From Cupriavidus pauculus (GTDB taxonomy: Bacteria > Pseudomonadota > Gammaproteobacteria > Burkholderiales > Burkholderiaceae): a stretch of DNA of 64,000 nucleotides. Below, one piece after another: positions 1 through 15,436 of this stretch. The stretch is taken from positions 1,922,001-1,986,000 of the forward strand of contig NZ_CP044065.1 of NCBI RefSeq assembly GCF_008693385.1. Direction: 5' to 3'. Position numbers and translations under genes: made by a program. Under the pieces are notes generated by a model that saw only the letters and a program-made list of their open reading frames with translations, searched no databases and was not told the origin of the DNA. Positions within the stretch are counted from its first letter, which is position 1; every line of letters starts with the position of its first letter.

Positions 1-279
1 CGGCCAGGCATCCCCGTGCTGGGCAGCGCGTCCCTGCCCGGATTCTCGGCCGAACCCTGGAATGGGTTGCTCGGCCCCGCCGGCCTGCCGCGCGACATCG
101 TCGGCAAGCTCAATGCCGCGGTCAACGACATCATGGGGAGCGAGCGCGTGGCCACCCGCCTCAGGGAAATGGATCAGTACCCGTTCCCCGGTTCCCCCGG
201 CAGTTTTGCCGATCACATCCGCGTGCAGACGCAACGCACCGCGGACATCGTCCGAACGTCGGGCCTCACGTTCGAGTAA
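1..279 (+). CDS. Bug/TctC-type solute-binding protein, C-terminal end (cut by window start)
   Basis: The reading frame is open from base 1, so only the last 92 residues are present and the start lies outside the window. The segment has the C-terminal pattern of Bug (TctC-like) periplasmic receptors: a WNGLLGPAGLP stretch, then an amphipathic helix (DIVGKLNAAVNDIM), then a terminal segment ending in RTSGLTFE. Such proteins bind small carboxylates for tripartite transporters or act as orphan receptors. It lies 14 bases before the dehydrogenase gene, so it is probably the first visible member of that plus-strand operon. Family assignment is fairly sure; the ligand cannot be read. Confidence 0.82.
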   Translation, partial: RPGIPVLGSASLPGFSAEPWNGLLGPAGLPRDIVGKLNAAVNDIMGSERVATRLREMDQYPFPGSPGSFADHIRVQTQRTADIVRTSGLTFE

Positions 280-293
280 TCAGGAGCATTCAC

Positions 294-1184
294 ATGAAAG
301 CAGGATTCATCGGCCTTGGCCGAATGGGATTCGCATTGGCAACGCATCTGCGACGCAACGACGTGAACGTCGCCGTGTTCGATCTCCATCCGGACCCCGT
401 GGAAAAACTTGCCGCGCTGGGCGCGCGCGCCGGCACCAGTGTCCGGGACGTGGCCGAACAGGCGGATGTCGTCTTCACGATGCTGCCCGGACCGCGGCAA
501 TCGCGCGACGTCGTGCTCGGCGCCGATGGCGTGCTGGCCCATATGCGCCCCGGTGCGCTGTTCGTCGAGCTCAGCACGATCGATATCGATACCGTTGACG
601 ACATCGCCCGCGCCGCCAACGAAAAGGGCATCCGGTTTGCCGACGCCCCGGTCGGCCGGCTCGCGACGAACGCCGATCGCGGAGAGTCGCTGTTCATGGT
701 CGGCGCCAGCGATGCCGACTTCGAAGCCGTGCGGTCCATTCTGCTCAGGATGGGCACCACGGTCCAGCACTGCGGCAATCCGGGCGCCGGCACGCGGATG
801 AAGCTCATCAACAACCTCATGGTGCTGTGCTACTGCCAGCTCAATTCCGAGGCGCTGGTCCTCGCCAGTTCGCTGGGCATGGACGTGAAGAAGACCTTCG
901 ATGTGCTGACGGGCACCACGGCCTCGAATGGCCAGCTCAAGGAGAAGTGGCCCATCAAGGTACTCAAGGGCGACCTCACGCCCGGCTTCGACATTGCCCT
1001 CGGATTCAAGGACCTGACGCTCGCCTGCCAGGCCGCGCAATCCAGCGGCGTCTCGCTGCCCGTCGGCAACCTCGTGCGGAGCATGTTCCAGCTGGCACGC
1101 AACGCCGGCTACGACGGCAACGACACATCGTCGATGACGGAGTTCTGGGCGAATGCCAACGGCATCGCCGCCCCCCGCTGCTAG
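294..1184 (+). CDS. NAD(P)-dependent beta-hydroxyacid dehydrogenase (3-hydroxyisobutyrate dehydrogenase family)
   Basis: This 296-residue protein has the usual length and order of the family. An N-terminal Rossmann domain has GLGRMG at residues 7-12. The substrate loop is DAPVGRL (about 117-123), where the classical members have DAPVSGG. The catalytic lysine and asparagine are in KLINN (K170, N174), followed by the all-helical C-terminal domain. The family oxidises beta-hydroxy acids such as 3-hydroxyisobutyrate or tartronate semialdehyde to the oxo form. The altered substrate loop argues against a plain 3-hydroxyisobutyrate enzyme. An AGGAG ribosome site precedes the ATG. It sits between a Bug receptor and an aldehyde dehydrogenase, so it is inferred to act on an intermediate of the same pathway. 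Confidence 0.9.
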   Translation: MKAGFIGLGRMGFALATHLRRNDVNVAVFDLHPDPVEKLAALGARAGTSVRDVAEQADVVFTMLPGPRQSRDVVLGADGVLAHMRPGALFVELSTIDIDTVDDIARAANEKGIRFADAPVGRLATNADRGESLFMVGASDADFEAVRSILLRMGTTVQHCGNPGAGTRMKLINNLMVLCYCQLNSEALVLASSLGMDVKKTFDVLTGTTASNGQLKEKWPIKVLKGDLTPGFDIALGFKDLTLACQAAQSSGVSLPVGNLVRSMFQLARNAGYDGNDTSSMTEFWANANGIAAPRC

Positions 1185-1228
1185 TCGGCACCGCGACTCT
1201 GGTGTCCCACTTTGTAAAGGCCTGACAA

Positions 1229-2659
1229 TTGAACTACGCACAATTCATCGCCGGCCAGTTCCGGCAAGGCGCCTCCGGCAAGTACATCCACATCTTCAAC
1301 CCGGCCAATGGCCAGCCGCTGGGCGAATACGCCTGCGCGTCCGAAGCGGACGTCGAGCAGGCCATCTCCGCGGCTGCGGATGCCTTCCGCAGCTGGCGGG
1401 TCAGGTCGCCGCTGGAGCGCTCTTCCCTCTTGCGCCGCGTTGCCGAGCTGATGAAAGAACGCGAGGAAGCATTCGCGCGGCAGATCTCGCTGGAACTCGG
1501 CAAGCCCATCGCGGAGTCCCGCAAGGAAGTCGCCACGGCATGGGAGATGTTCGAATGGTCGGCGGAGGAAGCCCGCCGGCTCTACGGGCGCGTCATTCCC
1601 GCGCGCACCCGTGGCACCACGCAGACCATGCTGCTGGAACCCATGGGTCCCGTCGCGGCGTTCGCGGGGTGGAACGCGCCGGCCATCACCCCCGCGCGCA
1701 AGATCAGCGGCGCGCTCGCCGCCGGCTGCACCGTCGTGCTGAAGCCATCGGAGGAGACGGCCGGCGTAGCGCTGCTCCTGGCGCAGGCGATCCAGGACGC
1801 CGGCATTCCCGACGGCGTCGTGAACATGGTGTTTGGCGACGCCGCGGAGATTGCCGGGCAACTGTGCGGCTCGCCGAAGATCGCCATGCTCACCTTCACC
1901 GGGGCGACCGCGGTCGGCAAGACGCTGGGCGCCAAGGCGGCCAGCACGCTGAAACGGGCAACGCTGGAACTGGGCGGCCATGCGCCCGTCATCGTCACGG
2001 CCGACGTCGATGTCGATCGCGTCGTCAAGGCTGCGGTGGCCACGAAGTTCAGGAACTCGGGCCAGTTCTGCGTATGCCCGACGCGGTTCCTGATCGACGA
2101 ACGGATCTTCGCGCGGTTCTCGGCGCAGTTCGCCAGCGCTGCCCAGGCGTGGCGCGTCGGCGACCCGTTCGATCCGGCCACGCAGATGGGCCCGTTGAAA
2201 AACCAGCGCCGTCTCGACGCCGTCGAACGGCTCGTCGACGATGCGCGCGGCCGCGGGCTCGAGATCGCGGCAGGCGGGCAACGCATCGACGCACCGGGCT
2301 TCTACTATCGCCCGACCGTGATCCTCCAGCCTGGCGCGGACAGCGACGTTTCCAATATCGAGCCGTTCGGCCCGATTGCGCTGCTGAGCGCCTTCACGGA
2401 CCTGGACGCGGCGATCGCCGAAGCCAACCGGCTGCCTTTCGGCCTCGCTGCCTACGGCTTCACGAACCATCTGGGTACCGCGGACCGCCTCGCGCACGAG
2501 ATCGAAGCCGGCGCGGTGTGCATCAACGAGTGGCAGGCTTCGCTGCCAGAGACGCCTTTCGGCGGCTACAAGGATAGCGGACTGGGATCCGAGGGCGGCA
2601 TCGAGGGACTTCGCGAGTTCCTGCGCGTCAAGTGCGTTCGCCAGAGCGCAGGCACCTGA
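1229..2659 (+). CDS. NAD(P)-dependent aldehyde dehydrogenase (succinate-semialdehyde dehydrogenase type)
   Basis: A 476-residue aldehyde dehydrogenase oxidising an aldehyde to the acid with NAD(P). The general base is in ELGGH (E247), the nucleophile in QFCVC (C281, with a second cysteine two residues on, common in succinate-semialdehyde enzymes), and the cofactor motif FTGATAVGK is present. The C-terminal PFGGYKDSGLGSEGG segment is complete. The best start is TTG at 1229, since no in-frame ATG gives a full N-terminus (MNYAQFIAGQF). The SSADH-like subfamily covers glutarate, succinate and aromatic semialdehydes, so the substrate is open. Position in the operon after a beta-hydroxyacid dehydrogenase suggests sequential oxidation of the same compound. 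Confidence 0.9.
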   Translation: MNYAQFIAGQFRQGASGKYIHIFNPANGQPLGEYACASEADVEQAISAAADAFRSWRVRSPLERSSLLRRVAELMKEREEAFARQISLELGKPIAESRKEVATAWEMFEWSAEEARRLYGRVIPARTRGTTQTMLLEPMGPVAAFAGWNAPAITPARKISGALAAGCTVVLKPSEETAGVALLLAQAIQDAGIPDGVVNMVFGDAAEIAGQLCGSPKIAMLTFTGATAVGKTLGAKAASTLKRATLELGGHAPVIVTADVDVDRVVKAAVATKFRNSGQFCVCPTRFLIDERIFARFSAQFASAAQAWRVGDPFDPATQMGPLKNQRRLDAVERLVDDARGRGLEIAAGGQRIDAPGFYYRPTVILQPGADSDVSNIEPFGPIALLSAFTDLDAAIAEANRLPFGLAAYGFTNHLGTADRLAHEIEAGAVCINEWQASLPETPFGGYKDSGLGSEGGIEGLREFLRVKCVRQSAGT

Positions 2660-2696
2660 CACGTCGGGCATCCGAGCAGGCATGGAGACAAACAAC

Positions 2697-4007: not shown

Positions 4008-4011
4008 GACC

Positions 4012-5070
4012 ATGACGCTGCGATCGCAAACCCCTGCCGCGGAGGATCCGCCCGTCCTGCACCCTCCCCGGCTGCCCCACGCCTGGTACACGACGGCGCC
4101 TGAAGCGCCGATCGACCCGGAGCGCCCCATCATCGACGCGCACTTTCATTTTTCCGATCACTGGGCCGGCTATCGGCTGGAGGACCAGTTGCGCGACGCG
4201 GCGGCCGGCCATCGCATCGACGCGACGATTTTCATGCAGGTCGGCTGGAAATACCGGACCCGTGGCCCCGAGCATCTTCGGCCCGTAGGCGAAACGGAAG
4301 CCGTCGCGGCACTGGCGGAACAGGCCACATCGCGCCGCACGCCGACGCGGATTGCCGCGGGCATCGTCGGCTATGCGGACCTGTGCCTCGGCGATGCCGT
4401 GACCGAAGTGCTGGACGCGCACGAAGCGGCCGCCCGAGGCCGATTCCGGGGCATCCGGTGCGCCGCGGCACGGCATCCGTCGTTCCGCTTCGGCGTGTTG
4501 CCGCGGCCTCCGGCCGGACTGTACGCCCTGCCCGGCTTCCGGGCAGGATTGCGCCGGCTGTCCGCGCGAAACCTCGTTTTCGATGCCTGGATCTACCACA
4601 CCCAGCTGCAGGAAGTCATCGACCTGGCGCGCGCGGTACCGGACGCCACCATCGTGCTGAATCACGTCGGCGGCATCCTCGGCGTCGGCGATTACGCGGG
4701 GCGGCGTGACGAGGCCTTTCGCGAGTGGATCACGCCGATCCAGACGCTGGCCGCATGCCCGAACGTGTTCGTCAAGATCGGTGGCTACGGCATTGCCACG
4801 TTCGGGTTCCAGACCGAATCGATGCCCGCGCCGCCGTCTTCGGCCACGCTCGCCGAGCTGTGGCGCCCGTCCGCGGAGGTCGTGATCGAAGCATTCGGCG
4901 CCGCCCGATGCATGTTCGAAAGCAATTTCCCCGTCGATCGATCATCGGGCCATTACGCGACGGTGTGGAACGCGTTCAAGAGAATCGCGCAGCTTGCCAC
5001 GGAGGACGAGAAGGACGACCTCTTTCATGGCACGGCCGCGCGCGTGTACCGAATCGGGGCTGCCGCCTAA
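4012..5070 (+). CDS. Amidohydrolase family protein (amidohydrolase 2, PDC-lactonase-like)
   Basis: A 352-residue metal-dependent TIM-barrel hydrolase. The strand-1 metal motif is in DAHFHF (near residue 40), a mid-barrel histidine is in IVLNHVGG, and the terminal aspartate region is MFESNFPVDR. This pattern matches the 2-pyrone-4,6-dicarboxylate lactonase / decarboxylase-like branch. These enzymes hydrolyse lactones or decarboxylate aromatic or ring-derived acids. The ATG at 4012 has GGAG seven bases upstream and begins just after the transporter stop, so the two are translationally linked. Its stop overlaps by four bases the stop of the opposing coxS-like gene. The substrate is unknown; a lactone or ring-cleavage step is my inference. 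Confidence 0.85.
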   Translation: MTLRSQTPAAEDPPVLHPPRLPHAWYTTAPEAPIDPERPIIDAHFHFSDHWAGYRLEDQLRDAAAGHRIDATIFMQVGWKYRTRGPEHLRPVGETEAVAALAEQATSRRTPTRIAAGIVGYADLCLGDAVTEVLDAHEAAARGRFRGIRCAAARHPSFRFGVLPRPPAGLYALPGFRAGLRRLSARNLVFDAWIYHTQLQEVIDLARAVPDATIVLNHVGGILGVGDYAGRRDEAFREWITPIQTLAACPNVFVKIGGYGIATFGFQTESMPAPPSSATLAELWRPSAEVVIEAFGAARCMFESNFPVDRSSGHYATVWNAFKRIAQLATEDEKDDLFHGTAARVYRIGAAA

Positions 5071-5552
5071 CTGACCGAGACGGTCCCGTCATCGCCATCG
5101 TGCGCGGCATGATGGATGGCTTCGACGATTGGCTCGTACGCCGTGCATCGGCAGAGATTGCCGCTGATGGCATGGCGTATCTCGTCTCGCGTGGGAGACG
5201 GATTCCTTCTCAACAGGTCCGCGGCCACGACAAGCATGCCGCTCGTGCAGAACCCGCACTGGAACGCATTGTGGGAAATGAACGCCCGCTGCAGCGCTTC
5301 GATGGCATCGAGGCCCTCGATGGTTCGCACGTCGTTGCCGTCGATCGACGCCGCGAGCACCAGGCATGCTTTCCTGACCTCGCCATCCAGCAGCACACTG
5401 CAGGCCCCGCAGTCCCCTGTCAGGCATCCGACCCGGGTGCCCTTTGCATCGAGCCCGTCACGAATCAGTTCGACGAGCAGCAGCCGGCTATCCGCTTTTG
5501 CCGCGCGCGGCGTGCCATTCAGCACGAGGTTGATCGTCTTCGTCGTTGTCAT
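5067..5552 (-). CDS. Molybdenum hydroxylase small subunit, [2Fe-2S] (CoxS/XdhA-type)
   Basis: The electron-transfer subunit of a three-part xanthine-dehydrogenase-family enzyme, 161 residues. The plant-type cluster is bound by C43, C48, C51 and C63 (GCLTGDCGAC...C). The second cluster is bound by C99, C102, C134 and C136 (CGFC and CRC). Length and both Cys sets are complete. Its ATG overlaps the stop of the FAD subunit (ATGA, 5549-5552), so it is the last gene of the minus-strand transporter-CoxL-CoxM-CoxS operon. The family hydroxylates heteroaromatic rings, aldehydes or activated C-H positions using water as the oxygen source. Confidence 0.95.
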   Translation of the reverse strand: MTTTKTINLVLNGTPRAAKADSRLLLVELIRDGLDAKGTRVGCLTGDCGACSVLLDGEVRKACLVLAASIDGNDVRTIEGLDAIEALQRAFISHNAFQCGFCTSGMLVVAADLLRRNPSPTRDEIRHAISGNLCRCTAYEPIVEAIHHAAHDGDDGTVSVS

Positions 5553-6406
5553 GCGTCTACCTCTTCGATCGCGGCGCGGAGGTTGCGCCTGATTGCCGCT
5601 GGCAATACCGCGCGGCGATAGGAGGCGTCCGCGAGTTCGTCGCTCCAGCCCTCGCCCGCGCCAGCCATGGTCTCCGCGACGATGGCGTCGAGCCATGCAT
5701 CGCCGTGGAGGCCCGCGCCCGGGAAGGCACGAGACACGACGACCGGGCGCGGCGTGGCCGCCCCCACGGCGAGGCGAACGCGCGCGGGCTCGCCCAGTCG
5801 CACCGCGCAGGCCACGGCCACGATGGGCCACGAGCTCGCACACGGCTTGTACTTCTGGTATCGCCAGACCTCCGGGGCCCGCGCAAGCGGAATCTCGATA
5901 TGCGTCAGCAACTCGTCGGGCCGGCGCGCGGTGTGGAACGCGCCAAGGAAGTAATCGCCGGCCGCGACACTGCGCGTGCCATCCGCGGAATGCAGCAGGA
6001 AGGCGGCCTCTAGTGCGCAGAGGCATGCCGGCGCATCGGACGCCGGGTTGGCGAACGCAGCGGAACCGCCCAGCGTGCCCTGGTTCCAGATCGACGGGCC
6101 GCCGGTGACCTGTTCCGCCATCATGCGGAGCAGCGGCAGATGTTCGGCCACGACGGGCGAGGCCAGCAATTGCGCATAGCTCGTCATCGCGCCAATGCGC
6201 ACATGCGTGTCCGTCAGCACGACCGTGTCCAGATGCAGGCGCGACAGGCCGACGACGTGCTTCCAGCGGACCTGATTGGCCGACATTGCCGGAACCAGCA
6301 TGGTGCCGCCGCCGATGACCGTGGCCTCTCCCGCGAATTGCCGCAGCAGCCCGGCGGCCTCCTTCAGGGAGGCCGGCCGATGAAACTCGAAAACCTCGCC
6401 GATCAT
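5549..6406 (-). CDS. Molybdenum hydroxylase medium subunit, FAD-binding (CoxM-type)
   Basis: A 285-residue FAD subunit. The flavin-binding motifs are the VIGGGTMLVP segment near residue 31 and the second motif NQGTLGGSAAFANPASD around residue 109, both characteristic of CO dehydrogenase medium and xanthine dehydrogenase middle chains. The C-terminal CO_deh_flav_C domain is present. The ATG at 6406 overlaps the coxL-like stop (ATGA, 6403-6406), and its own stop overlaps coxS. It passes electrons from the iron-sulfur subunit to NAD or another acceptor. The long in-frame extension upstream is antisense-type read-through and was not included. Confidence 0.94.
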   Translation of the reverse strand: MIGEVFEFHRPASLKEAAGLLRQFAGEATVIGGGTMLVPAMSANQVRWKHVVGLSRLHLDTVVLTDTHVRIGAMTSYAQLLASPVVAEHLPLLRMMAEQVTGGPSIWNQGTLGGSAAFANPASDAPACLCALEAAFLLHSADGTRSVAAGDYFLGAFHTARRPDELLTHIEIPLARAPEVWRYQKYKPCASSWPIVAVACAVRLGEPARVRLAVGAATPRPVVVSRAFPGAGLHGDAWLDAIVAETMAGAGEGWSDELADASYRRAVLPAAIRRNLRAAIEEVDA

Positions 6407-8766
6407 GCATGCCTCCCGCTCAACGCCGCGATCACTCGCGCGGGGGTAGCCGGCACATGCTCGAGCTGCGTCTCGCCGCCCAGTGCATCCGCCACCGCGT
6501 TGGAGACGGCCGCGAGCGCGCCGCCCACGCCCGATTCGCCCGCCCCTTTCATGCCGAGCGGATGAAACGGATTCGGCGTCGTAAGGTGGCCCACACGTAT
6601 GGGGGGAAGGTCCGTCGCGCGCGGCAACAGATAGCTCTTGAATCGGTCGGTGATCATCCGGTGCCCGGCGTCGTACTTCAGTTCCTCGTAGAGCGCCGTG
6701 CCGATCCCCATGGCCACCGCGCCCCGCAATTGCCCCTCCACCAGCTGGGGATTGATCATCACGCCACAGTCGTGGACCACGGCGTAGTCGAGCAGGCGGG
6801 AATTTCCCAGCTCCGTATCGACCTCGATCGCCACCGCATGCACGGAATAGGAGAACGTCGGATATGTCGCGATCCTTCCCTGCGCGTCGGGTTCCACCCG
6901 GACATTGGCGGGCGCGAAGCTGCGCGTGACCTCCAGCGGCAGCTCGACATTCGCGGCCACGGTGAACGGCCGGACGTGCACACCGAGCGCAATGTCCGCG
7001 ATCGACACCTTCCGGTCCGTATTGCCAAGCCATGCAAAGCCGTCCCGCAGCGCGATGTCCGCCTTGCCGCCGCCGAGCATGTTGGCGGCACACTGCGCCA
7101 GCTTGTCGCGCAGGTCGCGCGCGGCAAGCAGCGCGGCCGTTCCGCCATACATCAGTGCCCGGCTGCTCGCATTGCCGGTGCCTACCGGCGTGACATCGGT
7201 GTCGCCCTGCGTGACCATGACCTGGTCGACGCGCAGGCCCAGTTCGCCCGCCACCATCTGCGCGATGCCGGTGTCGCTGCCGCTGCCCGGCGAGGTCACG
7301 CCGGTCAGCACCTGGATATCGCCCGATGGCGTCAGCCGGACCGTCGAGGTTTCGTAACCGTTCGGGAAATTGCCGGGTCGCGCCCCGCCCTCCGGCGTCA
7401 GCTCGAACGCAATGCCGACACCGATGCGGATCGCATCGGCACGGGTCTCGCGCGCGCGGGCTCGCCATGCGTCGTAGCCGAACATCGGCAGCAGCTGTTC
7501 CAGCGCGGCGGGATAGTCGCCGCTATCGACGTTGAGCCCTGAGGGCAGCAGTCGCGGGAGCGCGTCCCTGGGCACGAGGTTGCGCCGGCGAAGCTCGACC
7601 GGATCGATGCCCGTGCGCCGCGCCATCAGGTCGATGGCGCGCTCGATGACGAGGTTGCCGATCTCCTTGCCGTACCCGCGAATCGCCTGCCATGGCGCAT
7701 GATTCGTGATCGCAAGCGCGCACTCCACGTCGCAGTTGTCGATCGTGTAGACGGTCGGGAAGACGGCAGGCGTGACCAGTGCCATGGCCCAGCTGTGGCC
7801 CGCGGCCATGATGCCCACGTCGGCCAGGATGCTGTCGCGCCATCCGATCAGCCGCCCGTTCTCGTCCGCCGCGAGCGCGAAGGTGTGGTGCTGCGACCGC
7901 GCGCCCGCGAGCAGCGTTTCTCTCCGCTCTTCGACCCACGCCACCGGACGCCCGGTGAGCCTGGCGAACAGCGCGACCAGGACTTCCTCCGGATGCCCCG
8001 CCATCTTCAGCCCGAAGGTCCCGCCGATGGCCGGGGCCACGATGCGTACCTGCGTCTCTTTCACGCGCAGGGCGGCCGCAACGAGCCACCGGCTCGTATG
8101 GGGATTCTGGAAGGTGCCGGTCAGCACATAGCACTGCGCCCGCCGGTCCCACTCGCCCACGTAGCAGAGCGGTTCCATGGGCGCACTGGTGGAAGGCGCG
8201 ATGGTCATCGTGCCCTTCACGACATGCGCGGCCCGGGCAAACGCGTCGTCCGCATTGCCCGCACGGATGCGGTCGCGCATGAGCAGATTGGTTTCCCAGC
8301 CCGGCTGGACGATCGGCGCGCCCTCGCGCAACGCGTCGCGGGCATTGACCGTCGGGGCATGCACCGCGTACTCGACCGCCACCTTCGCGACGGCCGCCTG
8401 CGCGGCCTGCACCGAGTCGGCGACGATCGCGGCGACGGGCTGGCCAAAATACACGGCCTGGTCCACGGCCAGGCATCGGCTTTGCAGCGGCCCGCGGGCG
8501 GCGGCCGCGGGCAACGCCATCGCCGCCGGCATGGCATCGCACAATTCGGCAGCCTGGGCGCCCGTCAGTCCCGCAACGACGCCCGGCATCCCGAGCGCCG
8601 CCGTCATGTCGATCGACACGATCGTCGCGCTGGCATGAAGACTGCGCACGATACCGAGGTGAAGCGCGCCAACCGGAATCAGGTCGGCGCTGTAGGCGAT
8701 GCTCCCGGATACGAAACGATCGCCATCGAGGCGCGTGACGCTGGCGCCCGGTACGGTTTCACTCAT
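6403..8766 (-). CDS. Molybdenum hydroxylase large subunit, Mo-pterin-binding (CoxL/XdhB-type)
   Basis: The catalytic subunit, 787 residues, with an N-terminal ferredoxin-like a/b hammerhead domain and a molybdopterin-binding domain. Visible motifs are GGTFGLKM (about 245), RGYGKE (the RGxGxPE position), and KGAGESGVGGA near residue 740, which carries the invariant glutamate. The CO-dehydrogenase active-site loop with selanyl-cysteine was not seen, so this is a general hydroxylase, not CO dehydrogenase. Start chosen at 8766, where ATGA overlaps the transporter stop. The substrate is unknown. In this cluster, hydroxylation of a ring carbon to give a keto or enol product would fit the neighbouring diketone hydrolase. 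Confidence 0.93.
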   Translation of the reverse strand: MSETVPGASVTRLDGDRFVSGSIAYSADLIPVGALHLGIVRSLHASATIVSIDMTAALGMPGVVAGLTGAQAAELCDAMPAAMALPAAAARGPLQSRCLAVDQAVYFGQPVAAIVADSVQAAQAAVAKVAVEYAVHAPTVNARDALREGAPIVQPGWETNLLMRDRIRAGNADDAFARAAHVVKGTMTIAPSTSAPMEPLCYVGEWDRRAQCYVLTGTFQNPHTSRWLVAAALRVKETQVRIVAPAIGGTFGLKMAGHPEEVLVALFARLTGRPVAWVEERRETLLAGARSQHHTFALAADENGRLIGWRDSILADVGIMAAGHSWAMALVTPAVFPTVYTIDNCDVECALAITNHAPWQAIRGYGKEIGNLVIERAIDLMARRTGIDPVELRRRNLVPRDALPRLLPSGLNVDSGDYPAALEQLLPMFGYDAWRARARETRADAIRIGVGIAFELTPEGGARPGNFPNGYETSTVRLTPSGDIQVLTGVTSPGSGSDTGIAQMVAGELGLRVDQVMVTQGDTDVTPVGTGNASSRALMYGGTAALLAARDLRDKLAQCAANMLGGGKADIALRDGFAWLGNTDRKVSIADIALGVHVRPFTVAANVELPLEVTRSFAPANVRVEPDAQGRIATYPTFSYSVHAVAIEVDTELGNSRLLDYAVVHDCGVMINPQLVEGQLRGAVAMGIGTALYEELKYDAGHRMITDRFKSYLLPRATDLPPIRVGHLTTPNPFHPLGMKGAGESGVGGALAAVSNAVADALGGETQLEHVPATPARVIAALSGRHA

Positions 8767-10079
8767 TCGGCCCTCACCCGTTTCACGTTCACGCACAGCA
8801 TCAGGACGGCGCCGCATACGAGCAGCCCCGTCATCAGATAAAGGCCACTGTTGAGCGTACCGGTCCACGTCTTGAGCCAACCCATCGCGAACGGGCTCAC
8901 GAACCCGCCCAGCAAACCGATACTGTTGATGAAGGCAATGGCGCCGGCCGCGGCCGGAGACCCGGCAAGGTAATCCGACGCCATCGACCACAGCAGCGGC
9001 AGCGTCACGAAGACGGTGGTCGATGCCACGGCAAGAAGCACCAGCGTGACCGTCAGGTCGTGGGCGAAAGCGGGCAACAGCGCCAGTGCCGCGGCACCGA
9101 CGATCGCGCACAGCGCGCCGTGGATGCGTCGCTCCAGCAGCCGGTCTGAGCTGCGGCAAATCAGGACCATGCCCACCGCGGCGATCCCATAGGGAATCGC
9201 GGACAGCCAGCCGATATGCACGACATCCGTCGCGCCGGCGGTTTTCAGGACGGTCGGACCCCAGAAGCTCAACGCATACGTCCCGCAGATGAACGTGAAG
9301 TAGGCAAAGCAGATCCGGTACACCTTCGCATCGGTCAGCACCTCGCGCCAGAGCCCGTGCGCGCCGGAGTGAGCGGGCTCGCCATCGGCCTTCAGCGCCG
9401 CGCGCAGTTTGTCCTTTTCGGCCGCGCCGAGCCATCGCGCGCCCTCGAAACTGTCATCGAGCGTGAACCAGACGACGAGCCCGAGCAGGACCGCCGGCGC
9501 CGCTTCGACGATATACAGCCATTGCCATCCCGCAAGGCCCGCGACATCCGCGAGGCGCGACATGGCCCACCCCGATACGGGACCGCCGATCAGGCCGGCG
9601 ATCGGAAACCCGGTCATGAACAGCGCGAGGATCTGTCCGCGGCGGCTACGCGGAAACCAGTTGCTGAGGTAATAGACCACGCCGGGAAAGAATCCCGCCT
9701 CGAATACGCCAAGCAGGAATCGCAGCACGTAGAACTGCGTGGGCGTGGCGACGGTGGCCATGCAGCAACCGATGATCCCCCAGCAAATCATGATGCGCGC
9801 AATCGTCCGTCGCGCGCCGATGCGCTGCAGCAGCAGATTGCTCGGCACTTCGAAGAGAAAGTAGCCGATGAAGAAGATGCCGGCGCCGAGCCCATAGACG
9901 GCGTCGCTGAAGCCCAGTTCCTCCTGCATCTGCAGCTTCGCGAACCCGACATTGATGCGGTCGAGGTAGGCGATCACGTAGCAGACGATCAGAAGCGGTA
10001 TGAGGCGTAGCGCCACCCTGGTGTACAGCGCACGCGGGGACTCCCCCGCGTGCGCGGCGTCAACGCTCAGTTTCATCAT
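8763..10079 (-). CDS. MFS transporter, anion:cation symporter (ACS) family
   Basis: A 438-residue twelve-segment carrier. The N-terminal IPLLIVCYVIAYLDRINVGF and FFIGYFLFEVPSNLLL segments are the hallmark of ACS permeases for tartrate, phthalate, galactarate and similar anions. It is the first gene of the minus-strand operon; its stop overlaps the coxL-like start by four bases. GGAGACAGGAC lies just before the first of two consecutive ATGs. The promoter region upstream carries an 18-base palindrome (10104-10121), so expression is probably repressed by the TetR protein at 12125. It likely imports the substrate of the hydroxylase; identity not readable. Confidence 0.9.
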   Translation of the reverse strand: MMKLSVDAAHAGESPRALYTRVALRLIPLLIVCYVIAYLDRINVGFAKLQMQEELGFSDAVYGLGAGIFFIGYFLFEVPSNLLLQRIGARRTIARIMICWGIIGCCMATVATPTQFYVLRFLLGVFEAGFFPGVVYYLSNWFPRSRRGQILALFMTGFPIAGLIGGPVSGWAMSRLADVAGLAGWQWLYIVEAAPAVLLGLVVWFTLDDSFEGARWLGAAEKDKLRAALKADGEPAHSGAHGLWREVLTDAKVYRICFAYFTFICGTYALSFWGPTVLKTAGATDVVHIGWLSAIPYGIAAVGMVLICRSSDRLLERRIHGALCAIVGAAALALLPAFAHDLTVTLVLLAVASTTVFVTLPLLWSMASDYLAGSPAAAGAIAFINSIGLLGGFVSPFAMGWLKTWTGTLNSGLYLMTGLLVCGAVLMLCVNVKRVRAE

Positions 10080-10089
10080 GTCCTGTCTC

Positions 10090-10125
10090 CGGATATAGTT
10101 AGTTGACTGATCGAACAGTCAGTAG
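10090..10125 (-). promoter_or_regulatory. Predicted promoter and TetR operator for the transporter-coxLMS operon
   Basis: Bases 10104-10121 are a near-perfect palindrome (TGACTGAT, CG, AACAGTCA; one mismatch). On the minus strand it is followed at the right distance by a TAACTATA-type -10 element (about 10094-10101) that lies shortly before the transporter start. The same arrangement occurs in mirror image at 10193-10224, which supports both being functional. Operator role is inferred from symmetry and the nearby TetR gene. Confidence 0.6.
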
Positions 10126-10192
10126 CATAGGCAAGGCCATCCGCCATGGTCAAGCTCGCTCAGCGCAGGGGATTACCCTGAGTTTTTTGAGG

Positions 10193-10224
10193 TTGACTGA
10201 TCAATCAGTCAGCTCCTACTATAT
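10193..10224 (+). promoter_or_regulatory. Predicted promoter and TetR operator for the diketone hydrolase operon
   Basis: TTGACT (10193-10198) and TACTAT (10217-10222), 18 bases apart, form a good sigma-70 promoter. The perfect 18-base palindrome TGACTGATCAATCAGTCA (10194-10211) overlaps the -35 box and spacer, where a bound repressor would block polymerase. It matches the operator at 10104-10121 at 16 of 18 positions. Confidence 0.65.
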
Positions 10225-10301
10225 CCGAACCGGGACGACCTTGCTGGCGTGTGCTTCCAGCGGGTCTCGCGCTCTTCCATCCATCGATTAGGGAATTTCT
10301 C

Positions 10302-11063
10302 GTGAGTACTTTCGACGAATACGCAAACAAGTTCGAGACGATCCGCATGACGCGTCACAACGGCATCCTCGAGATGCACTTTCATACCAACGGCGAGCCG
10401 CTGGTATGGAACCTGACCGCGCACCGCGAGTTCGAACAGGCATTCCTCGACGTGGGACGCGACCGCGAGAACGACGTGGTCATCATGACCGGCACCGGCG
10501 ATGCGTTCAGCGGCCCCGCCATCGCGCCTGGCATGCACCAGAACCGTAACTCGATGACGCCGTCGATCTACGACCCGATCTACTGGGAAGCGAAGCATCT
10601 GCTGATCAACCTGCTGAACATCGAGGCGCCCGTCATCAGCATCATCAACGGGCCGGCCGTGCGCCATTGCGAGATTCCACTGCTCGGCGATATCGTGCTG
10701 GCGTCGGACACTGCGCTGCTGCAGGACACGGCGCACTTCCAGGGTGGCATGGTGCCCGGAGACGGCATGCACCTGATCATGCCCCTGCTGATGGGCCGTG
10801 CGCGTGGCCACTACTTCCTGTACACGGGCCAGTCGATCTCCGCCGGCGAGGCGAAGGAGATGGGGCTCGTCAATGAAGTCATGCCGGCCGCCGACCTGCT
10901 GCCGCGTGCCCGCGAACTTGCCGAGCAGATGCTGCGCCAGCCGCGTCTGGTGCGGCGCTACACGCGTACCTGCCTGAATCAGGAGCTCAAAGGCCGCCTG
11001 CACGACGTCCTTGGATACGGACTCGCCCTTGAAGGCGTCGCGCGCATGAAGGAGCCAGCTTGA
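10302..11063 (+). CDS. Crotonase-superfamily beta-diketone hydrolase, 6-oxocamphor hydrolase-like
   Basis: A 253-residue crotonase fold. Most crotonases bind CoA thioesters, but this one carries the residue set I recall for Rhodococcus 6-oxocamphor hydrolase, which cleaves a C-C bond of a cyclic beta-diketone by a retro-Claisen reaction. That set is a tryptophan in PLVW (W36), H122 in RHCEIP, H145 in TAHF, D154 in VPGDG and E244. Long stretches such as DIVLAS and VPGDG with TGQ also agree. Start is GTG at 10302, with AGGGA before it. It is the first gene of an operon with a Bug receptor overlapping its stop and lies divergent from the molybdenum hydroxylase operon. C-C hydrolysis is strong inference; the exact diketone is unknown. 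Confidence 0.8.
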   Translation: MSTFDEYANKFETIRMTRHNGILEMHFHTNGEPLVWNLTAHREFEQAFLDVGRDRENDVVIMTGTGDAFSGPAIAPGMHQNRNSMTPSIYDPIYWEAKHLLINLLNIEAPVISIINGPAVRHCEIPLLGDIVLASDTALLQDTAHFQGGMVPGDGMHLIMPLLMGRARGHYFLYTGQSISAGEAKEMGLVNEVMPAADLLPRARELAEQMLRQPRLVRRYTRTCLNQELKGRLHDVLGYGLALEGVARMKEPA

Positions 11064-12046
11064 AGCCGCTGGCCCGGCTATGCGTGCTGGCCCCGGTCGC
11101 GTGTCTCGTCATCGCGGGCACCGGGGCGGCGGCCGCCGACAATGACACCGCGTTCCCCGCACGCGTGGTCAAGATCGTCGTGCCTTACACGGCGGGCGGC
11201 GCGACGGATGCCGTCGCGCGGAGCCTCGCCAATCGACTGGGCGCGGTATGGAAGCAGCCCGTCGTCGTGGAGAACCGCGGCGGCGCGTCCGGCATGATCG
11301 GTCTGGACTACGTGGCGAAGGCCGCTCCGGACGGCTACACGCTCGTGCTGAGCGATAGCGCGCCCTTCGTCATCCTGCCGGCGCTGTATCCGAAGATGTC
11401 GTATGCCCCCCAGCGCGACTTCGCGCCGATCACCGTCGTGGCGCGCCAGATCCCGATACTGGCCGTCTCCTCGGCGGTCCCCGCGAAGACCGTCGGCGAG
11501 TTCCTGGCCTATCTGAAGACGCATCCGGACACGGCCTACGCTTCGCTGGGGGCGGGTTCCTATCCGCACGTCGCGATGGAGCAGTTCCTGCAGCGCAGCG
11601 GCGCGCGGATGCTGCACGTCCCGTACAAGGGCACGTCGCAGGTGGTCACCGATATCATCGGCGGTCAGGTCAGTGCGTACATCGGCACGCTCGGCGCCTT
11701 CGAGACGTACGAGAAAGCGGGAAAGGTGCGCATTCTGGCCGTCGCGACGGAAAAGCGCGTGGCCTTCCGGCCTGACCTGCCGACCGTGGCCGAGTCCGGC
11801 GTGCCGGGCTTCGCGGTCAACACCTGGTTCGGACTGGCCGCGCCGAAAGGCACGCCGCAGCCCGTGCTGGACAAGATCCAGCGGGACGTCGGCGCGCTGC
11901 TGGCGGACAAGACCTTCGTCGATCAGGCCCTGACACCGCAAGCCCTGCTGCCCGGCGGGGACTCGCGCCGTGACTTCGGAGAGCTCGTCAAGACCGACAC
12001 GGCGCGCTGGGCCGATGCCGTCAAACGCGCCGGCATCAAACTCTGA
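11060..12046 (+). CDS. Bug/TctC-type periplasmic solute-binding protein
   Basis: A 328-residue Bug receptor with a signal peptide (hydrophobic segment ending near residue 26, TGAAAA). The mature protein begins with the family signature PARVVKIVVPYTAGGATD, and a DYVAKAAPDGYTL segment follows. The start is TTG at 11060, which overlaps the hydrolase stop (TTGA), so translation is coupled. Bug proteins bind small organic acids with high affinity and feed tripartite transporters or sensors. No TctA/TctB partners are in the window, as is usual for orphan Bug genes. Operon position ties it to the diketone hydrolase. Confidence 0.9.
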   Translation: MKPLARLCVLAPVACLVIAGTGAAAADNDTAFPARVVKIVVPYTAGGATDAVARSLANRLGAVWKQPVVVENRGGASGMIGLDYVAKAAPDGYTLVLSDSAPFVILPALYPKMSYAPQRDFAPITVVARQIPILAVSSAVPAKTVGEFLAYLKTHPDTAYASLGAGSYPHVAMEQFLQRSGARMLHVPYKGTSQVVTDIIGGQVSAYIGTLGAFETYEKAGKVRILAVATEKRVAFRPDLPTVAESGVPGFAVNTWFGLAAPKGTPQPVLDKIQRDVGALLADKTFVDQALTPQALLPGGDSRRDFGELVKTDTARWADAVKRAGIKL

Positions 12047-12089
12047 CGTTGACGAAACGGCGACGTGCGCTATCCTTCCACCCCAGAAC

Positions 12090-12107
12090 TGACTGATCAA
12101 CCGACTA
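12090..12107 (+). promoter_or_regulatory. Candidate autoregulatory operator before tetR
   Basis: The half-site TGACTGATCAA, identical to the left half of the 10194-10211 palindrome, stands 18 bases upstream of the TetR start codon. The right half (ACCGACTA) is only partly symmetric. Its sharing between three places around this cluster suggests the TetR protein also controls itself, probably more weakly. Confidence 0.45.
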
Positions 12108-12124
12108 GCACCATCGGAACGACC

Positions 12125-12862
12125 ATGAAAACCACCCGAGCACGCAAGCCCTCCGCCGCCGACGAAGCGCGTCAGGAAGACAGCCGGCCTCAGCCCGGGT
12201 CGCGCATCGCGGCCATTCTCAACGCCGCGGAGCGGGTCTTCGGCACGCATGGGTATGCGGGCGCCAGCATGCGTCAGATCGCGGAAGACGCGGGCGTCGC
12301 GCAGGCGCTGCTCCACTATCACTACGCATCGAAGGACAGGCTGTACGAAGCCGTCTTCGAGCGCCGCTCGGCGGCAATCAACCAGCATCGCGGGCAGTTG
12401 CTCGATGCGCTGTTCGCGGGCACGGAGCCGGCAACCGTCGAGGATGTACTCACGATCGCGTTCACGCCGCTGTCCGAGATGTTCCGGGGGGAGGATGCCG
12501 AGAACCTTGCGCTGTATGTGCAGATGGTCGCCGCCATCAGCCTCGGCAGCGACGAGCGCTCGCGCCGATTGCGCGAGCAATACTACGATCCCATTGCCGA
12601 GCGCTTTATCGACGCGATTCAGACCGTATTGCCCGCCATCTCGCGCGAGGATGCCGTCTGGGCCTACCTGTTCTCGGTGGGCGCAAGACAGCAGGCGCAT
12701 GCACTGAATGGCCGCGCGGAGCGCCTGGGCGCTTCCGTGCGCACGCCGAAATCGACGTCCCACTACTCGGCGCTCGTGCGGTTTGCAGCCGCCGGTATCC
12801 GCGAGATGATCGCGGACGACCACGAGAGTCGTTCGCAGCGGCCCCGCAAGCGCCGCGCCTGA
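12125..12862 (+). CDS. TetR/AcrR-family transcriptional regulator
   Basis: A 245-residue regulator with a long charged N-terminal arm. Its helix-turn-helix (SMRQIAEDAGVAQALLHYHY, about residues 48-67) is followed by the all-alpha ligand-binding domain. ATG at 12125 is preferred over an upstream GTG because the upstream bases hold the putative operator. It sits between the Bug gene and a thiolase in the same direction. Palindromes with a shared TGACTGATCAA half are found before this gene and in the divergent promoter region 10080-10301, so I infer it represses the cluster and responds to a pathway intermediate, perhaps a CoA ester. Confidence 0.9.
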   Translation: MKTTRARKPSAADEARQEDSRPQPGSRIAAILNAAERVFGTHGYAGASMRQIAEDAGVAQALLHYHYASKDRLYEAVFERRSAAINQHRGQLLDALFAGTEPATVEDVLTIAFTPLSEMFRGEDAENLALYVQMVAAISLGSDERSRRLREQYYDPIAERFIDAIQTVLPAISREDAVWAYLFSVGARQQAHALNGRAERLGASVRTPKSTSHYSALVRFAAAGIREMIADDHESRSQRPRKRRA

Positions 12863-12930
12863 CGTCAAAATAGATTAGTATCGTCATGTAAAGTTATCCT
12901 TTTCCGATGTTGATCACGAGGAAACCCGAC

Positions 12931-14112
12931 ATGTCGATACCTGAAGTAGTGCTCTGCCATCCGGTCCGAACGGCCATTGGTGCTTTCCACGGCGCACTGG
13001 CGACCGTCCCCGCGACCGACCTCGGCGCCGCCGTGATCGCCGAGGCCGTCCGTCGGTCGGGCCTGGACCCCGCGGCGTTCGGAAGCGTCACCATGGGCAA
13101 CGTGGTGCAGGCGGGCAATCGAATGAATCCCGCGCGACAGGCCGCCATCCACGGCGGCATACCCGTCCAGGTTCCGGCGCTGACGGTCAATCGGGTCTGC
13201 GGGTCGGGCGCCCAGGCGATTGCGACGGCTGCCGACGAAATTCGTCTCGGCTATCTGCCCGTGGCGATCGCCGGCGGCATGGAGAACATGGACCGCGCCC
13301 CCTACCTCCTGCCCTCCGGACGCTGGGGTAGCCGCATGGGAGACGCCGTCATGCATGACAGCATGCTCCATGACGGCTTGAACGATGCCTTCTCCGGGCA
13401 GGCTTCCGGGTGGCACACCGAAGACCTGGCATCCCGCTACGAACTGACGCGCGAGAGCCAGGACGCATGGGCGCTTCGCTCCCAGCAGCGCTTTGCTTCG
13501 GCCAAGGCCGCGGGACGGTTCGCACGCCAGATCGTCGCCGTCCAGACGCGCGACAAGAAGCCCGTGTCGTTCCAGGAAGACGAAGCGAACCGCCCGGACA
13601 CCACGCTGGACATCCTCGCGAAACTGCGGCCGGCGTTCCGCCCCGAAGGCACGATCACGGCCGGCAATGCGCCGGGCCTGAACAGCGGCGCGGCCGCGTT
13701 GATCGTGTCCGACAGGCAGTATGCCGAGACGCATGGACTGGCCCCGATGGCAAGGCTGGTGGCCTATGGCGTGGGCGCGGTGGAGCCCGGGCTGTTTGGA
13801 CTGGGGCCTGTTCCCGCGGTCCGGCAAGCGCTTGCACGCGCAAACTGGTCGCTGTCCGACGTGGAACGTTTCGAGATCAACGAAGCCTTCGCCGCGGTGC
13901 CGCTGGCGGTGGCCGCGGAGCTCGGCATTCCGCACGACATCGTCAATGTCGACGGCGGCGCCATTGCGCATGGGCACCCGATTGGCGCGACGGGCGCGGT
14001 CCTGACCACTCGCCTTCTCCATTCGATGGCCGATGACGGCATCCGCCGCGGCATCGTCACGCTCTGCATCGGCGGTGGACAAGGCATTGCGCTGGCACTG
14101 GAGATGCTCTGA
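12931..14112 (+). CDS. Thiolase (acetyl-CoA C-acyltransferase)
   Basis: A 393-residue biosynthetic/degradative thiolase of typical length. The nucleophilic cysteine is C90 in NRVCGSG, the catalytic histidine H349 in GHPIG, and the second cysteine C379 in CIGGGQG. An earlier ATG (12907) is possible, but GAGGAAA sits six bases before 12931 and the family length fits better. It could split a 3-oxoacyl-CoA produced from the ring-opened keto acid of this cluster, giving acetyl-CoA. Note the convergent TetR gene ten bases downstream. Confidence 0.93.
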   Translation: MSIPEVVLCHPVRTAIGAFHGALATVPATDLGAAVIAEAVRRSGLDPAAFGSVTMGNVVQAGNRMNPARQAAIHGGIPVQVPALTVNRVCGSGAQAIATAADEIRLGYLPVAIAGGMENMDRAPYLLPSGRWGSRMGDAVMHDSMLHDGLNDAFSGQASGWHTEDLASRYELTRESQDAWALRSQQRFASAKAAGRFARQIVAVQTRDKKPVSFQEDEANRPDTTLDILAKLRPAFRPEGTITAGNAPGLNSGAAALIVSDRQYAETHGLAPMARLVAYGVGAVEPGLFGLGPVPAVRQALARANWSLSDVERFEINEAFAAVPLAVAAELGIPHDIVNVDGGAIAHGHPIGATGAVLTTRLLHSMADDGIRRGIVTLCIGGGQGIALALEML

Positions 14113-14122: not shown

Positions 14123-14755
14123 CTACCGGGGCGCCGGCTGGTCCAGCGCGGCGTCCCACATTCCCATCGCGTCGTTCACGGCCTTCTCGATGACGGCATA
14201 ACGAACGCGATCGCGGGCGAGCACGGAGAGCCCCTGGAAAAAGCAGTCGAACGCCATCGACAGCGAAACCGGATCCGTGCTCTTGCGCAACTCCCCGCTC
14301 TTGATGCCGCGCTCCACGCAGGCACGAAAGCCGGCGCGCGTGCGGCTACGCACCTCGCGAAGCAACTGGGTGACACTTTCGCTGCCGGTGGAACTGGCCC
14401 CGACAACGCCCAGCGCGACCATACAGCCTTTCGGATGGCCACTCTCGGTCTGCATCTTCGCCGACCGGAGCAGGGCCAGGTACACGCCCTCCCGCGGCGC
14501 AAGCGACGTGTCATGGAGGCTGCGGGTCAGCTTGCCATGAATCTCCATGTATCGCTCCAGCGCCTCCTTGTACAGCGCCTCCTTGGACTCGAAGGCCGCA
14601 TAGAAGCTGGTCGCGGAAATGCCTCCGCCGATCGCCGCCTTCAGTTGCGACAAGGACGTCGACTCATACCCATGCTCCCAGAACAGATGCATCGCCGAAA
14701 CGATCGCCGCATCGCGGTCGAATTCGCGCGGCCGACCCCGCTGAACCATGAACAT
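14123..14755 (-). CDS. TetR/AcrR-family transcriptional regulator
   Basis: A 210-residue TetR protein. It starts with RGRPREFDRDAAIVSAM, a common opening of the TetR group with a C-terminal TetR_C_16-like domain, and has the recognition region SLSQLKAAIGGGISATSFYAAF. It is divergent from a SnoaL-like gene and a DHA2 pump. The intergenic region contains two copies of an 18-base repeat (14838-14855 and 14912-14929) that are candidate binding sites. It probably controls those two genes. Confidence 0.9.
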   Translation of the reverse strand: MFMVQRGRPREFDRDAAIVSAMHLFWEHGYESTSLSQLKAAIGGGISATSFYAAFESKEALYKEALERYMEIHGKLTRSLHDTSLAPREGVYLALLRSAKMQTESGHPKGCMVALGVVGASSTGSESVTQLLREVRSRTRAGFRACVERGIKSGELRKSTDPVSLSMAFDCFFQGLSVLARDRVRYAVIEKAVNDAMGMWDAALDQPAPR

Positions 14756-14837
14756 CTCCGTCAGTAAAAGAAATACAGACTAATCGATACACAATCTTAG
14801 AGCAAGTTGACAAGGCTCGCTTCGCCCCCTTATATTT

Positions 14838-14855
14838 GTACTACTCGGTACGGAA
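14838..14855 (+). promoter_or_regulatory. Direct repeat copy 1, candidate TetR operator
   Basis: GTACTACTCGGTACGGAA, present again at 14912-14929 with a single change. GTAC flanks the core on both sides, giving partial dyad symmetry. It lies in the divergent region between the tetR gene ending transcription leftwards and the SnoaL-like gene. Confidence 0.5.
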
Positions 14856-14911
14856 TTACGGAGAAGCGCGGGGGCACCACACAATCCCTCGCAATTTTTT
14901 TCACTATTTGT

Positions 14912-14929: not shown

Positions 14930-14937
14930 AACAGCCA

Positions 14938-15411: not shown

Positions 15412-15436
15412 CACTGCCCCCTAGCCGCCGAAACTT

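What the first reader, a model, noticed from the sequence alone, without database searches (positions are those of the whole stretch)
1..14112. Possible new catabolic route: molybdenum hydroxylase plus oxocamphor-hydrolase-like C-C hydrolase
The hydrolase at 10302 keeps W36, H122, H145, D154 and E244 of 6-oxocamphor hydrolase, an uncommon crotonase that breaks a C-C bond of a cyclic 1,3-diketone. It is divergent from a CoxLMS-type hydroxylase operon with its own importer, and in line with a Bug receptor and a thiolase. A pathway of ring hydroxylation/oxidation, retro-Claisen opening and thiolysis would explain the set, and the plus-strand dehydrogenases and amidohydrolase could finish the carboxylate. 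I do not know a described pathway with this gene set.
Basis: partly seen in the sequence, partly recalled or inferred. Interest (0 to 1): 0.75.

Follow-up and report, generated by a model that had tools for sequence, protein, structure and literature searches.

The report
Co-regulated ring-opening gene module, substrate unknown
A set of soil-bacterium genes under one shared switch appears to oxidise an unknown cyclic acid with a molybdenum enzyme and then break it by an unusual carbon-carbon hydrolase; the same set recurs in distant bacteria, so it looks like a real breakdown pathway whose food compound is still to be found.

Summary
The core observation holds. The 10302-11063 protein is a close homologue (45-47% identity) of 6-oxocamphor hydrolase (OCH) and Anabaena beta-diketone hydrolase (ABDH), with all six active-site residues kept, divergent from a CoxLMS molybdenum hydroxylase operon.

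The pairing is no local accident. CoxL lies beside OCH in 26 of the 30 closest loci, from Cupriavidus to Streptomyces, and in 0 of 44 more distant ones. The 27 linked CoxL form one clade, 100/100. A palindrome on both divergent promoters occurs in 20 of 20 loci with the local TetR and 0 of 54 without. Its only other exact copy in the genome fronts a cupin gene just 5' of the window. One of SMP-30, PF04199 cyclase, MBL or cupin accompanies OCH in 29 of 30 loci.

The thiolase stays possible but unproven.

Best reading: a TetR-controlled pathway for a cyclic organic acid: molybdenum hydroxylation, hydrolysis, CoA-independent retro-Claisen cleavage. Substrate unknown. Closest known logic: MhyADH/AtcABC plus a diketone hydrolase.

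The parts
5067..5549 (-). CoxS-type [2Fe-2S] small subunit of the molybdenum hydroxylase
   Evidence: PF01799 104.5 bits; conserved beside OCH
5549..6406 (-). CoxM-type FAD medium subunit
   Evidence: PF00941 140 bits
6403..8766 (-). CoxL-type molybdopterin large subunit with loop RGYGKE and the GAGESG loop that holds the catalytic-type Glu (role recalled)
   Evidence: PF02738/PF20256; 1t3q 349 bits; OCH-linked clade 100/100 and RG[YF]GK[ED] in 27 of 27 linked versus 0 of 29 other rows
8763..10079 (-). MFS importer of the anion:cation symporter type (HpaX/galactonate-like)
   Evidence: PF07690; NCBIfam 2A0114 313 bits and HpaX 305 bits, both below cut-off
10104..10121 (.). operator 1, palindrome TGACTGATCGAACAGTCA, next to the leftward promoter
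10124..10153 (-). sigma-70-like promoter of the MFS-CoxLMS operon (TTGACC-18-TATGCT)
   Evidence: consensus match only
10193..10222 (+). sigma-70-like promoter of the OCH operon (TTGACT-18-TACTAT)
   Evidence: consensus match only
10194..10211 (.). operator 2, palindrome TGACTGATCAATCAGTCA, inside the rightward promoter
10302..11063 (+). OCH/ABDH-type crotonase (beta-diketone hydrolase), 253 aa
11060..12046 (+). Bug/TctC periplasmic solute receptor, start overlapping the OCH stop by 4 bp
   Evidence: PF03401 203 bits; beside OCH in C. plantarum (85%) and three Pigmentiphaga-type loci (65-70%)
12125..12862 (+). TetR-family regulator of the module (TetR1)
   Evidence: PF00440/PF17939; presence agrees with operator presence in 74 of 74 loci

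Best explanation
This is a TetR-controlled catabolic module for a cyclic, probably heterocyclic, organic acid. Import is by the MFS permease or Bug receptor (inferred from families). The CoxLMS hydroxylase puts a water-derived oxygen on the ring (inferred from family). A metal-dependent hydrolase, in Cupriavidus apparently the co-regulated cupin and elsewhere SMP-30, PF04199 cyclase or an MBL-fold enzyme, hydrolyses the product, most simply a lactone or lactam (inferred). The OCH-type crotonase then cuts a 1,3-dicarbonyl by CoA-independent retro-Claisen hydrolysis (active site shown, reaction inferred). One product is a 3-oxo acid passed to CoA-transferase, thiolase or BKACE (inferred from other genomes). 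Shown by sequence: a shared operator, a conserved partnership and a hydrolase slot. My lead for the chemistry is a 4-pyranone- or 4-pyridone-type carboxylate hydroxylated next to the ring heteroatom, giving a beta-oxo lactone or lactam (about 0.25). The stated confidence is for the module-level claim, not for the substrate.
For: Sequence and fold match OCH/ABDH with all six residues kept. CoxL of one clade lies beside OCH in 26 of 30 loci at 64% or more OCH identity and in 0 of 44 below; chance proximity is about 4% in this genome, from 15 such large subunits in 7.06 Mb (my arithmetic). In 8 genomes whose OCH has no CoxL neighbour, no CoxL match at 1e-60 exceeds 37% identity, against 40-89% in the 4 linked genomes searched. 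Operator and TetR1 co-occur in 20 of 20 and 0 of 54 loci, and both divergent promoters carry the operator. The genome has three exact operators: two here and one before the cupin, plus one 1-mismatch site elsewhere; C. plantarum repeats the three. One slot enzyme in 29 of 30 loci, the exception cut by the contig end. 3-Oxoacid CoA-transferase, thiolase or BKACE lie near OCH in L034, L035, L046, L052, L060. Importers are of ACS, MHS, AAHS and Bug type, the MFS ones below their subfamily cut-offs.
Against: Three Pigmentiphaga-type loci (OCH 81-84% identical) keep SMP-30, Bug and OCH without this hydroxylase anywhere in the genome, so the Mo step is not obligatory or is replaced. No evidence names a substrate. 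The cupin's slot role rests on co-regulation in two Cupriavidus and one distant adjacency (L057, 44%). SMP-30, cyclase, MBL and cupin need not do the same reaction, and the MBL of L034/L035 and that of L052/L060 are not recognisably related to each other. L046's CoA-transferase and thiolase may be an ordinary pca cluster (PcaF above cut-off). The module is rare and patchy.
Confidence: 0.6

Rival explanations
1. Cyclic-enone route: the molybdenum enzyme works like MhyADH or AtcABC, adding oxygen at the beta carbon of a ring enone to give a cyclic 1,3-dione, and OCH itself opens the ring to an oxo acid. The slot enzyme then acts later or is a second ring opener.
For: Known logic for cyclohexanol (PMC3692508) and for steroid ring A (PMC6208644; Jacoby 2025 title seen in a reference list). 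ABDH is solved with a 3-oxocyclohexyl product (titles). Chelativorans L048 has a FAD_binding_2 protein beside OCH. The cyclase family includes DPGC, a retro-Claisen ring opener.
Against: With the L048 protein as the only query, 1 of 74 loci has it next to OCH and L081 has a 30% match starting 3.4 kb before OCH. SMP-30 and MBL lactonase-type partners are not needed in this route. The importers suggest acids, not neutral ketones. The hydratase activity of MhyADH is itself disputed (PMC4052635).
Confidence: 0.25
2. One reading: ring oxidation, retro-Claisen opening and thiolysis of a terpenoid or cyclic ketone, completed by the window's thiolase, HIBADH, ALDH and amidohydrolase.
For: The genes lie close together; the thiolase starts 68 bp after TetR1 and a 93-94% identical copy is in the same region of C. 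plantarum; thiolases occur near OCH in L034, L035 and L046.
Against: The left operon is not at the C. plantarum locus and its amidohydrolase is nowhere in that genome at 1e-20. No operators stand before it; LysR is divergent from it. In C. plantarum the thiolase is about 11 kb away, among unrelated genes and without an operator.
Confidence: 0.1
3. The crotonase is an ordinary CoA-thioester enzyme and the CoxLMS neighbour an unrelated aldehyde oxidoreductase.
For: Pfam and NCBIfam see only generic enoyl-CoA hydratase homology; thiolase and CoA-transferase neighbours handle thioesters.
Against: All six OCH residues kept and OCH/ABDH far ahead of any thioester crotonase; no enoyl-CoA hydratase cut-off reached among the 25 NCBIfam rows shown of 64; no acyl-CoA ligase among the module genes; conserved co-regulation with CoxLMS.
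Confidence: 0.07

Closest known systems
6-oxocamphor hydrolase of Rhodococcus (PDB 1o8u, 1szo; host recalled) and Anabaena beta-diketone hydrolase (2j5g, 2j5s)
   Same: Fold, 44-47% identity, six active-site residues (ABDH has F for W36), CoA-independent class by the title of the ABDH paper.
   Different: R121 next to catalytic H122 is invariant in the 18 closest sequences (N in OCH, L in ABDH) and a HxNRxxMTP loop is longer; here the gene belongs to an operon system with a molybdenum hydroxylase; natural substrate unknown.
MhyADH cyclohexanol pathway of Alicycliphilus denitrificans and AtcABC steroid 2,3-seco pathway
   Same: Three-subunit xanthine-oxidase-family molybdoenzyme followed by hydrolysis of a 1,3-dione.
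   Different: No OCH-type crotonase is named in the passages I read. Substrates there are neutral alicyclic ketones or steroids; here importers are of organic-acid types and a TetR regulon is present.
Phloroglucinol degradation of Clostridium scatologenes (DPGC, TfD, TAL; PMC10470551)
   Same: Retro-Claisen C-C hydrolysis of a cyclic 1,3-dione; DPGC is of the cyclase family, as is the gene before OCH in 13 loci; TAL is a BKACE, as found beside OCH in L052 and L060.
   Different: Pathway described without a molybdenum hydroxylase or OCH-type enzyme in the passages read; the window's genome has no match to the module cyclase.
Quinoline 2-oxidoreductase (1t3q) and 6-hydroxypseudooxynicotine dehydrogenase (7dqx)
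   Same: Same enzyme family and subunit plan; among the best PDB matches of CoxL.
   Different: No specific affiliation: Qor, a CODH CoxL and KDH score 349, 347 and 321 bits.

Membership tests
OCH/ABDH-type CoA-independent beta-diketone hydrolase | Active-site set W/F40, H45, H122, H145, D154, E244 (OCH numbering; roles recalled; ABDH catalytic H43, H144, D153, E243 read in PMC3584854) | tested here: met
OCH/ABDH-type CoA-independent beta-diketone hydrolase | Closest fold match is OCH/ABDH, well ahead of thioester crotonases | tested here: met
OCH/ABDH-type CoA-independent beta-diketone hydrolase | Hydrolysis of a non-CoA 1,3-diketone | not testable with these tools
   needs the purified protein
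Enoyl-CoA hydratase (crotonase proper) | Reaches a curated enoyl-CoA hydratase family score | tested here: not met
   best NCBIfam 116.5 bits against cut-off 354, none of the 25 rows shown of 64 reached; Pfam's superfamily model ECH_1 is passed
Xanthine-oxidase-family molybdenum hydroxylase | Three subunits with 2Fe-2S, FAD and Moco domains, catalytic Glu in the GxGE loop | tested here: met
   (loop identity recalled)
Aerobic CO dehydrogenase, form I | AYxCSFR active-site loop (recalled) | tested here: not met
   no match by pattern; aligned loop reads QAIRGYGKE
MhyADH/AtcABC hydratase-dehydrogenases | Sequence relationship of large subunits | not tested
Phloroglucinol-type cyclase (PF04199, DPGC family) step | A relative of the module cyclase in the same genome | tested here: not met
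   no match at 1e-6 in the window's genome or C. plantarum, while the control genome gives 635 bits; present in 13 other loci

The most novel reading that the evidence does not exclude
An undescribed, O2-independent ring-degradation pathway shared by Pseudomonadota and Actinomycetota. A dedicated clade of molybdenum hydroxylases converts a heterocyclic acid into a beta-oxo lactone or lactam, one of several interchangeable metal-dependent hydrolases opens it, and an OCH-type crotonase cuts the resulting 1,3-dicarbonyl acid without CoA, giving a natural role to a crotonase class best known from camphor.
Probability: 0.3. Interest if true: 0.8.

Novelty: new variant of a known kind. Interest (0 to 1): 0.56.

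Why it matters
OCH-type crotonases belong to the few enzyme classes that break C-C bonds of free 1,3-diketones (recalled). The window protein has 3871 relatives at E 1e-20 or better among 4837 candidates (the list also takes in other crotonases), and I know of no natural substrate beyond camphor-type diketones. This locus ties one large clade to a specific hydroxylase, regulator, operator and hydrolase slot. The substrate question thereby becomes testable: the TetR inducer, the CoxLMS substrate and the OCH substrate should lie on one pathway. It would also show a reusable hydroxylate-hydrolyse-retro-Claisen logic outside steroid and cyclohexanol metabolism.

Tried and rejected
Substrate ideas considered from memory and not supported by any tool evidence: camphor/cineole, barbiturate/uracil oxidation, tropinone, phloroglucinol, ascorbate, furoate (no CoA ligase among the module genes), isatin, quinoline-type, riboflavin (PMC12746152 passages: the word crotonase does not occur). 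Kojic/comenic acid was searched (12 of 69 papers listed): none of those listed was about its bacterial breakdown by title.

Papers. Full-text searches (open-licence PMC only; listings capped at the best 10 to 30 of up to 433 papers) showed no paper describing an OCH-type crotonase with a molybdenum hydroxylase cluster; one search returned none. Seen as passages: PMC10470551, PMC3584854, PMC12746152, PMC9980454, PMC3692508, PMC6208644, PMC4052635, PMC12981152, PMC12507874. Jacoby 2025 (PMC11780191, steroid ring A beta-diketone hydrolase) and Hashimoto 2024 (PMC11407993, CurH) were seen only as reference titles; not held. I cannot say whether the Jacoby enzyme belongs to this OCH family; if it does, the novelty shrinks.

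Corrected on re-check. I first took the thiolase to be missing in C. plantarum because it is not in the fetched 20.8 kb. A genome-wide search found a 94% copy, about 11 kb beyond TetR1, same strand, between a 550-aa gene and a gene that looks like aspartate kinase (by eye), no operator within 3 mismatches in that stretch. The empty cyclase result had no control; supplies one.

A first CoxL tree gave weak joint support (83/31). Four of its 20 paralogue rows (L119, L127, L132, L135) had been translated on the wrong strand by my longest-frame rule. One search repeats it with the right strands and supersedes it (100/100). The outgroup of 29 rows is 7 of the own genome's other large subunits, 20 from other genomes, and L076, L086. 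Own paralogues with an extracted fragment of 550 aa or less, or with no tblastn hit at 1e-5, were left out. Regular-expression motif counts missed loops of the form RGFG; the aligned loops replace them.

Limits of the counts. L045 (cyclase, OCH rounded 64%) falls just under the 64% cut, into the group of 44. L036 begins 99 bp before OCH and L047's contig ends 148 bp after OCH, so absences there mean little. 9 of the 44 distant loci are on contigs under 10 kb. Loci are related, so the Fisher value overstates independence. The OCH tree used 59 of the 74 loci plus window, OCH and ABDH; left out are L021, L023, L025, L027, L043, L054, L063, L070, L072, L073, L084, L085, L087, L089 and L092. Some long branches near its root may be misplaced. 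L092 is only 27% identical.

The first AlphaFold model (pLDDT 75.8) was replaced by the deeper one. A sample of 396 genomes of the phylum of L033 found 4 with a match at 1e-70, one of them L033's own. In the window's own genus 2 genomes (G000 and G027) of 60 searched carry the close orthologue.
Full report
What was checked. The window lies in contig C1 of a 7.06 Mb, three-contig genome. Its crotonase is 98% identical to the one in Cupriavidus plantarum and the tool's same-genus set holds a genome with a 98% copy, so I take the genome to be a Cupriavidus (inference). Gene calls: HIBADH 294-1184, ALDH 1229-2659, MHS-type MFS 2682-4007, PF04909 amidohydrolase 4012-5070 on the plus strand; CoxS, CoxM, CoxL and an ACS-type MFS at 5067-10079 on the minus strand; OCH-like crotonase 10302-11063, Bug receptor 11060-12046, TetR1 12125-12862 and thiolase 12931-14112 on the plus strand.

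The partnership with CoxLMS. A genome-collection scan gave 74 loci. With the thresholds, 30 loci have OCH at 64% identity or more. 26 of these carry an orthologous CoxL within the fetched stretch (L030, L031, L032 and L047 do not; L047's contig ends just after OCH); 0 of the 44 other loci do, 9 of which are on contigs under 10 kb. The arrangements differ: divergent in Burkholderiales; cyclase-OCH-CoxLMS in Rhizobium, Methylobacterium, Xanthobacter, Mycobacterium, Amycolatopsis and Actinomycetospora; OCH-MBL-CoxLMS in Streptomyces; OCH-Bug-Bug-Bug-CoxLMS in Roseomonas; CoxL about 6 kb from OCH in Chelativorans. The window's genome has 15 such large-subunit genes (17 matches, one gene split in two and one below cut-off), so chance proximity within 10 kb is about 4% (my arithmetic; relatives are not independent). 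In the genomes of eight loci without a neighbouring CoxL (L030, L031, L032, L045, L047, L050, L052, L055) no CoxL match at 1e-60 exceeds 37% identity. In the four linked genomes searched the neighbour is 89, 72, 58 and 40% identical. All 27 linked CoxL proteins (26 loci and the window) form one side of a branch against 29 other xanthine-oxidase-family rows (100/100). All 27 share the loop RG[YF]GK[ED] at CoxL residues 363-368, which none of the 29 others has. In three MAG loci named Comamonadaceae or Hylemonella (L051, L056, L058) a different, two-subunit IorAB-type molybdenum enzyme stands in front of OCH.

Regulation. The 222 bp between the divergent operons holds two palindromes, TGACTGATCGAACAGTCA at 10104-10121 and TGACTGATCAATCAGTCA at 10194-10211; the chance expectation for the whole window is 0.08 matches at up to 2 mismatches. 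One lies in the rightward sigma-70-like promoter, the other next to the leftward one (3 promoter-like sites found, 0.6 expected). Two sites stand in the same intergenic region in 12 of 12 other divergent loci, the first with up to 2 mismatches (L019-L029, L043). Across the 74 loci the operator, at 2 mismatches or fewer, is present in 20 of 20 loci with a TetR1 homologue and in 0 of 54 without (Fisher p 1.7e-18, related loci not independent). In Alphaproteobacteria it fronts the cyclase-OCH, the MFS or the TetR gene. The whole genome has three exact copies, these two and one at C1:1919566-1919583, and one further site with one mismatch at C1:2727414 that was not followed up. The third exact copy is 40 bp before a 198-aa cupin gene at C1:1919624-1920220, just 5' of the window. 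C. plantarum has the same cupin, 95% identical, with the same operator in front, about 2 kb beyond its CoxS with an MFS gene between.

The hydrolase slot. Among the 30 close loci exactly one of four families is present in 29: SMP-30 in 14, PF04199 cyclase in 12, MBL in 2, cupin in 1 (C. plantarum). The exception, L036, begins 99 bp before OCH. Among the 44 others SMP-30 occurs in L055, an MBL protein in L052 and L060, cyclase in L045 and a 44% cupin directly before OCH in L057. The MBL proteins of L034/L035 and of L052/L060 did not find each other at 1e-8. On the OCH tree SMP-30, MBL and cupin each appear on separate branches. I read this as one step served by different folds; that is an inference. 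The window's genome has no cyclase match, with a positive control, and only a 41% SMP-30, so the cupin is the candidate there.

Downstream chemistry. A 3-oxoacid CoA-transferase lies near OCH in L034, L035, L046 and L052, with a thiolase in L034, L035 and L046; a BKACE lies beside OCH in L052 (Pfam) and L060 (68% to it). This fits a 3-oxo acid product. L046 may be an ordinary pca cluster, since its thiolase passes the PcaF cut-off. Importers are ACS, MHS, AAHS-like MFS or Bug types, families that usually carry organic-acid anions (established knowledge).

What does not belong, and what is open. In C. plantarum the left plus-strand genes are not between cupin and CoxS, although the flanking TetR, MFS and cupin genes on one side and CoxS on the other are shared, and the amidohydrolase is nowhere in that genome at 1e-20. 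In the window's genome these left genes start with a second Bug gene and have a divergent LysR. They look like a separate organic-acid cassette. The thiolase is open: 68 bp after TetR1 here, a 93-94% copy about 11 kb further on in C. plantarum without an operator, and no close copy in the other loci.

Mechanism and novelty. The module-level reading is given at 0.6. Two chemistries compete: hydroxylation next to a ring heteroatom, hydrolysis and retro-Claisen cleavage of the opened diketo acid (about 0.25), and an enone-to-1,3-dione route like MhyADH and AtcABC (0.25). The second logic is published for cyclohexanol (PMC3692508, passages) and steroid ring A (PMC6208644, passages), with the hydratase part disputed (PMC4052635, passages). 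DPGC of the phloroglucinol pathway shows that the cyclase family can do a retro-Claisen ring opening (PMC10470551, passages). So the kind is known; the conserved gene set, its regulator and its OCH-type enzyme are, as far as the listed searches go, a new variant with an unknown substrate.

Noticed in passing
window 1-5070 and L141 6237-8279: A LysR gene divergent from a plus-strand Bug2-HIBADH-ALDH-MHS permease-amidohydrolase operon lies between the module's cupin and CoxS; it is not at that place in C. plantarum, so probably an inserted (or there lost) organic-acid cassette.
   Followed up: partly
window 14123-16918: TetR2, a SnoaL-like protein and an MFS protein follow the module and are 89-93% identical to the same trio placed right after TetR1 in loci L025, L027 and L043, more similar than TetR1 itself (74%).
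   Followed up: partly
L051 1191-4594, L056 2476-5913, L058 7368-10768: A two-subunit IorAB-type molybdenum enzyme stands in front of an OCH-type gene in three MAGs.
   Followed up: partly
L052 6709-12200, L060 8995-12600: Alpha/beta hydrolase, MBL hydrolase and BKACE genes around OCH in two Hyphomicrobiales-type loci, in L052 also a 3-oxoacid CoA-transferase pair.
   Followed up: partly
L065, L067, L074, L077, L081 around OCH: A more distant OCH clade has an acetolactate-synthase-like TPP enzyme upstream and a HIBADH-family gene directly downstream, a different recurring context.
   Followed up: no
L020-L023, L025, L043 about 1 kb beyond CoxS; L040 14677: A HIBADH-family gene follows CoxS in six Caballeronia/Burkholderia-type loci and one Methylobacterium.
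   Followed up: no
L048 10797-12272: A FAD_binding_2 protein directly follows OCH in Chelativorans.
   Followed up: partly
G104 C69:232479-234815 (L028): The CoxL frame of Paraburkholderia graminis C4D1M holds two in-frame TGA codons; pseudogene or draft-sequence error.
   Followed up: no
G000:C1:2727414-2727431: A fourth operator-like site with one mismatch elsewhere in the genome.
   Followed up: no
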